Source: Doris montereyensis
Lineage: Eukaryota; Mollusca; Gastropoda; Nudibranchia; Dorididae
DNA: 64,000 nt
Reading direction: 5' to 3'
Assembly: GCA_037039925.1 (NCBI GenBank)
Contig: JAXRKP010000558.1
Coordinates: 210,164 to 274,163, forward strand
The translations under genes and the position numbers were made by a program. Positions 24,201-27,200 of this stretch are shown here, piece by piece. The notes under the pieces were generated by a model. The model was not told the origin of the DNA, ran no database searches, and saw only the letters and a list, made by a program, of their open reading frames with translations. Position 1 is the first letter of the stretch. Each line of letters begins with the position of its first letter.

Positions 24201-27200
24201 TCAGGATGTGGAGATGTGCTCATAAGTTTAAACCTAAGTAAGTTTAAATAGTGCTCACAAGTTTAAACCTAAGTAAGTTTGAATGGTACTCACAAGTTTA
24301 AACCTAAATAAGTTTGAATGGTGCTCACAAGTTTAAACCTAAATAAGTTTGAATGGTGCTCACAAGTTTAAACCTAAGTAAGTTTAAATAGTGCTCACAA
24401 GTTTAAACCTAAATAAGTTTGAATGGTGCTCACAAGTTTAAACCTAAATAAGTTTGAATGGTGCTCACAAGTTTAAACCTAAGTAAGTTTGAATAGTGCT
24501 CACAAGTTTAAACCTAAATAAGTTTGGATGGTACTCACAAGTTTAAACCTAAATAAGTTTGAATGATACTCACAAAGTTTAAACCTAAGTAAGTTTGAAT
24601 GATACTCACAAAGTTTAAACCTAAGTAAGTTTGAATGGTACTCACAAAGTTAAACCTAAGTAAGTTTGAATGGTACTCACAAGTTTAAACCTAAGTAAGT
24701 TTGAATGGTACTCACAAGTTTAAACCTAAGTAAGTTTGAATGATACTCACAAAGTTTAAACCTAAGTAAGTTTGAATGATACTCACAAAGTTTAAACCTA
24801 AGTAAGTTTTAATGGTGTTCACAAAGTTAAACCTAAGTAACTTCCATTTTTATACTGTTTTTCTCTTTTAACTTCCACTAGGTTTGAGACCATTCAGAAG
24901 GTCAAATCGCTACAAGGACAGCGCACCATAATGGACAAGATGGTGTCGCAACTGAAGAGAGACAAGGAATCAGCTACCAAGGCCATTAAGGAAGTGGAAA
25001 GCAGCCAGGAAAATTTTATACGCAAGATTCGAGTAAGATCTGCAGAAATTTTTTATTCAGTTTGTATATATATAACTTTTGTCTTATCTTTCAAGTTGAG
25101 ATGTAATCATCTAACATTTCTGCGGCACTTATTTTCCATATTTGTTGTTGTTTGGTAATTCATGAGATTGCTTAGACTTTGAAAAAAAGAAAGGTCCACG
25201 CGGAAAGCAAAGACAAACTAAAGCTTTATACCGTCCGTATGCATTGAAAAATCAGGACTCTATTCCGGATTACCCGACGCTCAGTTTTGAGTATCGTATT
25301 TACCTAACATTTAAGGGTAGTGGTGAATGCTCTGCCAAGAGTATGTAAATAGCGCTTGCTAACAAAATACTAGAATTTACATTTGCGACCTTGACAAAAA
25401 ATATCAATGTTTTCACCAAAGTCTTTCTTGAATTTTTTGTTTGTTTTTGTTTTTATTTTTATTTTTATTTTTATTTTTATTTTTATTTTTATTTTTATTT
25501 TTGCAGACGACTGACATGTCACGTGAGGAAATGAGCAGGATGACTAACACCCTGATGACCAACATGGACGTCTTGCTGAAAGATTTGAACAAGAAACTCA
25601 TGGAACAGAAGAATGCTGAGGAGCAAGAGAGATTGAGAAAAGTTCAGGTAAACACCCCCACACACACAGCAAACCGAGCGAATGGATTATGAACCAAAAA
25701 ACTATGAAATAGCAGCGAAATAAGAGAGCGGGAACACTGAAGCAGTGACCGAATATGCAGCATCAACATTGTGTAGTGATAATACATAGAACAGAAATAT
25801 TAAAACAGCGACAAAAAAAGAAGGAAGACAGCATCGACTTTGTATTGTGACAATACATAGAACGAAACTATTAAAACAGCAACAAAAAAGGAGGAAGACA
25901 GCATCAACTTTGTATGCCCTTCTTAAAATGAGGGCCTGCGCTCTTTCCATATCAACAAAGTCGGCCTTACATTTAGGGCCTGCGCTCTTTCGTATCAACA
26001 AAGTCGGCCTTAAATTTAGGGCCTGCGCTCTTTCCGTATCAACAAAGTTGGCCTTAAATTTAGGGCCTGCGCTCTTTCCGTATCAACATAGTCAGCCTTA
26101 CATTTAGGGCCTGCGCTTTTTCCGTATCAACAAAATTGGCCTTAAATTTAGGGCCGGTATGCTTCCGGGGCATATGGTAAACACATGGCTGGTGTTAAAA
26201 TGATCACAAATTAGAAGCAATGTCATTATATTAAACAGTGGCGAATTATGCATCAACGCAATTGAAGGAGTCAGTTCAATAGTGTGCCTAAGTCACAATT
26301 ACGTCACTTTGAGAAAAACATGTAAAAAACCATGGACTTTGGCACCGTTGGCTTTAAGGAATTTCAAGTTTTCAAACGGCTGTAAACGTGAAGTATTTTC
26401 ATCACATCATTCTCACGCTGTTCAGGAAGCATGAATTTACATTTACTCCCTAGGATGATCTCTCTGTCTCGTTTTTCACGAAAATGGACATAGGCACACT
26501 ATTGAACTGAGCCCTTCAATTATATATAGTGACAAAACAACAGTGACAAAACAACAGTGACAAAACAACAACAGTGACAATTAAAGACAGCAACTAAAAG
26601 CAACCACCACTGGGCGGTTGGCGGGTGCTACTGGTGGATTGTACTTCTTTCCTTTCCCTCTTACTCTTATTTTTTCTTTCATCTTTCTGTTTCCTCTTAA
26701 TTCATCCTTAGATCACCGCATATGGTGGTCGGGGTAAATTTCAATAAACAAACAAAGAAGCAGTTGTATGGTATGCGAGATAGATTTAACCAAGCGGCCT
26801 GAAATGGCGATAAAATCAATAGCAAGAAAAGTAAGAATGTAGAATTGCCAAAAGCACAGCTGTAAGGCTATGAGATATGATATATTTACACATATATATA
26901 TATTTCTGGCCTTTGGGGACTCGGTGATCAAGAGGCAAGGTGTAGATGAAAACACCGGGCACTTTAAAGATCATTTAATTGTTTTCAGGGCAAAATGAGG
27001 AAAAACCACATGAATAACACAGAGCTCACCTTATTACTTGTGGATGTGGGTAAAATCAAATCAAATCAAGTCATATCTGATAATCTTAAATCTACTGAAA
27101 CTCTTGTGTCCTACAGGAAGAAATGGAGAGGGACAGAAAACGCAAGGAAGATGAGGAGAGGAAACGAAGGGAAGAAGAAGAACAGAGGAAATTGTAAGTA

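What the first reader, a model, noticed from the sequence alone, without database searches (positions are those of the whole stretch)
24216..24840. MYO6 intron 19 is a tandem array of its own splice donor
Eighteen 35-36 bp units each copy the last 22 bases of exon 19 together with its 5' splice site. Twelve still read CTAA-GTAAGT and six read CTAA-ATAAGT. The GT/AT pattern shows a 105-bp higher-order repeat in the first half and a GT-only second half. Only the acceptor tract lies outside the array, so nearly the whole intron derives from the exon-intron border. The spliceosome therefore meets up to 12 near-identical donors. Use of any later one would add a TAA at once, cutting MYO6 just after the IQ motif. 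Either the first donor always wins, or a tailless motor is made. Origin of an intron by tandem duplication around a splice site is a known proposal; an intron still made of such copies would be a direct snapshot.
Basis: partly seen in the sequence, partly recalled or inferred. Interest (0 to 1): 0.82.

Follow-up and report, generated by a model that had tools for sequence, protein, structure and literature searches.

The report
Splice-donor tandem array in gastropod MYO6
In a sea-slug-like animal, an old intron of the myosin VI gene has been filled by tandem copies of its own start signal for splicing; this is a known but rare kind of repeat called a "mirage", not an intron being born, and it makes a natural test of how cells choose among identical splice sites.

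Summary
The array is real: 18 units of 35/36 bp from 24216, each repeating the last 22 bases of MYO6 exon 19 plus its 5' splice site. Donors: 11 GTAAGT, 1 GTAACT, 6 ATAAGT. The genome search found it at one place. Any later donor puts a TAA straight after KFKPK. The intron is not newborn: reading frames resembling other molluscs, bdelloid rotifers and a vertebrate-like animal break at exactly this codon, so the array grew inside an old intron. Intron 23 of the same gene has the same build: eight identical CTGCT|GTGAGTATGG donors, the second of which would add 24 codons in frame. This matches the 'mirage' minisatellites of amphioxus, tandem repeats spanning exon-intron borders and reported not to disturb splicing; human IFI6 is a cousin whose repeat donors are used. 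Best reading: a passively expanded and homogenised mirage-type minisatellite, with donor 1 normally winning by exon definition. No RNA evidence was available. The literature searches made listed no mollusc case.

The parts
24147..24237 (+). MYO6 exon 19 (91 nt); its last 22 nt (24216-24237) are the exon part of repeat unit 1
   Evidence: tblastn with Aplysia MYO6; coordinates checked
24216..24840 (+). Tandem array, 18 units of 35/36 bp, each with the exon-intron border; ends at 24840 by TRF
24238..24243 (+). Donor 1, the authentic 5' splice site (TAA|GTAAGT). Ten identical donors follow at 24273, 24378, 24483, 24589, 24625, 24660, 24695, 24730, 24766, 24802
24837..24842 (+). Donor of unit 18, GTAACT, weaker
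24308..24558 (+). Stretch holding the six ATAAGT (non-donor) units, at 24308, 24343, 24413, 24448, 24518, 24553; GT units lie between them
24841..24881 (+). Acceptor tract: the only part of intron 19 outside the TRF array (41 nt), with a pyrimidine tract, a branch-like TTAAC at 24868 and AG
   Evidence: the branch-point role is inferred
24882..25032 (+). MYO6 exon 20 (151 nt), completing the lysine codon AA|G
27632..27710 (+). MYO6 exon 23, ends AAAGCTGCT
27706..28248 (+). Second array of the same build, in intron 23 (27711-28560): eight copies of CTGCT|GTGAGTATGG at 27711, 27783, 27853, 27884, 27956, 28028, 28125, 28197; the second would add 24 codons in frame

Best explanation
An old, conserved intron of a working MYO6 gene in a heterobranch-like gastropod carries a mirage-type minisatellite. 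A short stretch across the exon 19 / intron 19 border was tandemly duplicated, then multiplied and homogenised by slippage or unequal exchange until it made up about 94% of the intron. Selection on the protein holds the exon-side copy in place. In splicing, donor 1 is chosen in most transcripts because exon 19 (91 nt, between introns of 887 and 644 nt) is recognised by exon definition, which favours the donor nearest the upstream acceptor. Leaks to later donors carry a stop codon right after KFKPK and should be removed by nonsense-mediated decay. Shown here: the array, its exon origin, the old intron position (indirectly), the identical donors, the immediate stop. Inferred: the mode of expansion, the preference for donor 1, the decay of leak products.
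For: Array and donors. One place found in the genome. Exon older than the copies: F, K, P, K of KFKPK are invariant in 12 aligned sequences. Old intron position: 7 of 21 hits of the exon 19-20 profile break exactly at this codon, and six bdelloid-like frames of the longer search end there. Homogenised interior: units 4, 6, 7 identical, 11 and 16 identical, last unit least like the first. Second case in intron 23. Working gene: protein distances normal for the group over 464 aligned residues. Precedents: amphioxus mirages (PMC3087553; PMC3902484). Donor choice: two identical CAG/guaagu donors 52 nt apart in exon-defined minigenes, upstream one used exclusively (PMC9225289).
Against: No RNA. No DNA of relatives was read, so the intron age rests on frame breaks in predicted proteins; 7 of the 21 hits run through this codon without an intron. 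The older proximity rule favours the downstream donor, and before filtering for equal strength about 60% of human alternative 5' splice-site events in PMC9225289 prefer the downstream site. When both minigene donors were weakened, large exons were skipped, and these donors are slightly weak for this gene (7.67 against a mean of 8.56). IFI6 repeats are used as donors. One-base frame breaks in the coding exons leave assembly quality in doubt. 0 of 25 other myosin exons in this genome has such an array.
Confidence: 0.82

Rival explanations
1. Functional switch: repeat donors are used at a meaningful rate, giving a tailless motor or lowering MYO6 through nonsense-mediated decay, perhaps depending on copy number.
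For: Eleven donors identical from -3 to +6. Human IFI6 uses two downstream repeat units as donors (PMC4526556). Intron 23's second donor would give an in-frame insert.
Against: Exon definition favours donor 1; amphioxus mirages are reported not to disturb splicing. Nothing here shows conservation of the array, so nothing shows selection for a switch.
Confidence: 0.09
2. Snapshot of intron birth: tandem duplication of an exonic stretch with splice signals created intron 19 recently (Rogers-type proposal).
For: About 94% of the intron is copies of the border. Mirages and boundary repeats have been proposed as sources of introns (PMC3087553; PMC2812944).
Against: The intron position is shared: frames resembling heterobranch, caenogastropod, abalone, bivalve, annelid-like, vertebrate-like and bdelloid sequences break at this codon.
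Confidence: 0.02
3. Assembly artefact: unit number, or the array itself, is wrong.
For: One-base frame breaks in coding exons (about 1618, 2299, 17249, 31735, 32749, and exon 25) point to an assembly with small errors. A published amphioxus mirage was misassembled in the draft genome (PMC3087553).
Against: Units carry patterned, shared differences, not random ones. One place found in the genome. Intron 23 shows an independent array of the same build.
Confidence: 0.04
4. Decaying gene copy: this MYO6 is a pseudogene, so the array is free of constraint.
For: Frame breaks in exons and a doubled, damaged exon 25.
Against: Normal protein distances. GT donors at 26 of the 28 exon ends examined (exons 25 and 27 not settled). 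Among 54 myosin-head matches (7 on this contig) no second MYO6 appears: of the 25 loci held from other contigs, 22 match Aplysia MYO6 by tblastn, at most 71% in their best piece, against 80.6-94.6% on this contig. A whole-protein search of the genome did not complete.
Confidence: 0.03

Closest known systems
'Mirage' minisatellites of amphioxus (Adh3, globins BflGb6 and BflGb9, troponin C, PGBD5; PMC3087553 and PMC3902484, passages read; Canestro 2002 seen only as a reference)
   Same: Minisatellite-like tandem repeats whose unit spans an exon-intron border with its splice signal; homogenised interior with deviating edge; the authentic site is the one next to the exon
   Different: A gastropod, not a cephalochordate; 18 units here against 6 and 3 in the BflGb6 haplotypes, and two arrays in one gene. 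Instability and splicing outcome not tested here
Human IFI6 (G1P3, 6-16) minisatellite with multiple splice donors (Turri 1995 seen only as a reference; PMC4526556 passages)
   Same: A tandem repeat in which several units carry a usable donor next to an exon
   Different: There two downstream units are used and give isoforms; here use is unknown, and intron 19 units all give a stop
Intron gain by tandem duplication (Rogers 1989 as cited in PMC3087553; potato RdRp, PMC4974935, seen in a search listing only)
   Same: Tandem duplication around splice signals
   Different: There the intron is new; here the intron is old and only its content is new

Membership tests
Mirage minisatellite (amphioxus type) | Tandem, minisatellite-like repeat whose unit spans an exon-intron border and repeats the splice signal | tested here: met
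   intron 19; intron 23
Mirage minisatellite (amphioxus type) | Homogenised interior, edges excluded from homogenisation | tested here: met
   Identical interior units 4, 6, 7 and 11, 16; unit 18 least like unit 1 (0.74) and the only one with GTAACT
Mirage minisatellite (amphioxus type) | Length instability between haplotypes or in somatic cells | not testable with these tools
   One assembly, one copy found
Mirage minisatellite (amphioxus type) | Regular splicing undisturbed | not testable with these tools
   No RNA data held
Multiple-donor minisatellite (IFI6 type) | Repeat donors are used in mRNA | not testable with these tools
   No RNA data held; no protein from this species appeared among the listed hits
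Intron gained by tandem duplication | Intron absent at this position in relatives | tested here: not met
   Frames of relatives break at the same codon; indirect, from predicted proteins
Myosin VI gene | Myosin VI specific lever and cargo-binding domains, exon-by-exon match | tested here: met

The most novel reading that the evidence does not exclude
The arrays act as copy-number-dependent splice rheostats. The identical U1 sites of intron 19 bleed a share of MYO6 transcripts into an immediate stop, or a tailless motor, while intron 23 can add an in-frame 24-residue block to the tail, so individuals or even cells that differ in repeat number differ in MYO6 output. Mirages would then be a general, unstable source of splice variation outside chordates.
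Probability: 0.08. Interest if true: 0.75.

Novelty: new member of a known kind. Interest (0 to 1): 0.42.

Why it matters
In the papers I could read, mirage arrays are described from amphioxus. Two in one gastropod gene suggest that they can arise elsewhere too. Eleven donors identical from -3 to +6, set in a 35/36-bp repeat after a conserved exon, are a natural experiment on splice-site choice: exon definition predicts the first, the older proximity rule predicts a late one, and the immediate stop codon makes errors easy to count.

Tried and rejected
Rejected: intron birth. Not supported: a special RNA structure. Four single units fold into a weak hairpin with the donor in its loop, z -0.8 to -1.7 against shuffles; two units together reach z -2.7, but repeats inflate this. 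Predicted accessibility is low at all 18 sites (0.02-0.10) and does not single out donor 1. No AATAAA or ATTAAA lies in intron 19, so there is no basis for a role in silencing poly(A) sites.

Survey of other myosin exons in the same genome: 0 of 25 loci held from other contigs have an array that repeats the donor. Two have a tandem tract near the match end: L012, an A-rich tract, and L029, a 22-bp doublet starting 32 nt past the end. HMM match ends only approximate exon ends, some loci overlap, and five minus-strand loci were redone. 23 of the 25 hold some array of period 10 or more, covering 8.8% of the bases. So mirages are not the rule here.

Chance placement: 12 arrays under 1 kb in MYO6, taken by hand (simple repeats and the 4-kb array dropped). 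Two cover a donor, 0.24 expected, P 0.023; for the five of at least 140 bp P is 0.009. Post hoc, and two of the 28 donor positions used (exons 25 and 27) were guesses.

Literature: PMC3862624 (Conus genes), the one gastropod paper in the listing, speaks of intronic microsatellites and not of border repeats in the passages shown. The searches cover openly licensed papers only.

Full report
What is there. The window lies in a 513-Mb unnamed assembly (G000, contig C3011) and holds a MYO6 gene on the + strand from about 121 to 33639; tblastn with Aplysia MYO6 finds its exons in order. The nearest named protein is Aplysia californica MYO6, 76% identity over 97% of the query, so the animal is most likely a heterobranch gastropod; the species is not known. 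Pfam confirms the myosin VI lever and cargo-binding domains. Exon 19 is 24147-24237 (91 nt), intron 19 is 24238-24881 (644 nt), exon 20 begins at 24882, and the intron interrupts a lysine codon in phase 2, AA|G. Exon numbers count coding exons found by tblastn.

The array. Eighteen copies of the exon's last 22 nt, most of them followed by GTAAGTTTGAATG or a variant of it, stand 35 or 36 bp apart. Eleven keep GTAAGT, one (the last) reads GTAACT, six read ATAAGT. From -3 to +6 the eleven are letter-for-letter the same and score 7.67 on a matrix built from 24 other MYO6 donors, whose own mean is 8.56: slightly weak but ordinary donors. Unit 18 scores 2.36. Interior units are nearly identical, some exactly; the last unit is the least like the first. 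The six AT units stand in a G-A-A rhythm over units 2-10, which fits one mutation carried along by exchange of three-unit blocks. That is my inference; if so, the lost donors are not evidence of selection against decoys.

Direction. The exon part encodes KFKPK, whose F, K, P and final K are invariant in 12 aligned sequences. The exon is therefore older than the copies. In the exon part unit 1 and unit 2 differ by one synonymous base.

Age of the intron. I could not read DNA of relatives, but frames predicted on genomic contigs run out of exons into introns and so mark borders. A profile of exons 19 and 20 gave 21 hits. Seven break exactly at this codon: P0241, P0242, P0246, P0250 and P0261 begin there with an arginine, as AG|G predicts; P0259 ends there as ...TRKFKPK; P0260 diverges there. 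Seven run through it (some of them may come from spliced transcripts, others show introns on either side and so lack this one), and seven start inside exon 20 and say nothing. Among 120 listed hits of the longer query, six frames, one named Rotaria and five like it, end exactly there as ...APR or ...APQ, as a phase-2 intron beginning GTAA would give (I printed 24 of the 120). So the intron is old and the array is a later filling.

Same build elsewhere. In the same gene, intron 23 (27711-28560) begins with an array of mostly 70-72-bp units that repeats CTGCT|GTGAGTATGG eight times. Here the second donor would add VSMDRNGFYLPVYLSLGFPLSLPA in frame; further ones shift the frame or come after stops. 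Around 25 other myosin-head exons of this genome no such array was found (0 of 25), although 23 of the 25 loci have some tandem array. Two donors out of about 28 in one gene is more than random placement of the arrays gives (P about 0.01-0.02), but the test is post hoc.

What it probably does. Later donors of intron 19 all put TAA next to KFKPK, so they can only truncate. In a minigene study of which I read passages, exon-defined exons with two identical strong donors 52 nt apart used the upstream donor exclusively, and equal-strength human events under intron definition preferred the downstream one (PMC9225289). With both donors weakened, large exons were skipped and smaller ones still used the upstream donor. 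Exon 19 lies between introns of 887 and 644 nt, above the 250-nt border given there, so donor 1 should win, if molluscs follow the same rule. Amphioxus mirages are reported to leave regular splicing undisturbed (PMC3087553; PMC3902484). Human IFI6 is the counter-example: two downstream repeat units serve as donors (PMC4526556). Which holds here needs RNA.

Known or new. Repeats of this kind were named mirages in amphioxus, and their authors proposed them as a source of new introns. The defining build is met here; instability and splicing outcome could not be tested. My searches for mollusc cases (with one paper checked) listed none, but only openly licensed papers are held, so this is not proof of priority. 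I file it as a new member of a known kind.

Caveats. The coding exons contain one-base frame breaks. Protein distances are normal for the group over the 464 residues compared, and no other MYO6-like locus appeared among the myosin-head matches looked at, so I take the breaks as assembly errors rather than decay; this was not proved. They also mean that single-base differences between units may in part be errors, and the copy number needs long reads.

Noticed in passing
27706-28248: Intron 23 of MYO6 also begins with a tandem array that repeats its own donor eight times; the second donor would add 24 codons in frame.
   Followed up: yes
about 1618, 2299, 17249, 31735, 32749: One-base frame breaks inside otherwise conserved MYO6 exons; probably assembly errors.
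   Followed up: partly
28903-28995 and 29637-29725: Two imperfect copies of MYO6 exon 25, both with frame or length damage; one may be a decayed duplicate.
   Followed up: no
8291-12473: About 4 kb of 40-bp tandem repeats within the MYO6 intron after exon 8.
   Followed up: no
44426-55796, - strand: A thiolase gene (Pfam Thiolase_C at 44426-44632 and Thiolase_N at 51974-52117), probably acetyl-CoA acetyltransferase (name recalled). A 109-bp doublet at 44178-44395 lies next to the first of these exons without its donor; a 43-bp array lies at 47554-48265.
   Followed up: partly
24226-24249 and later units: Each unit tested can form an 8-bp hairpin with the donor in its loop; not clearly better than shuffles.
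   Followed up: yes
61340-63927: Several further minisatellites (33-, 29- and 52-bp units) at the right end of the window.
   Followed up: no
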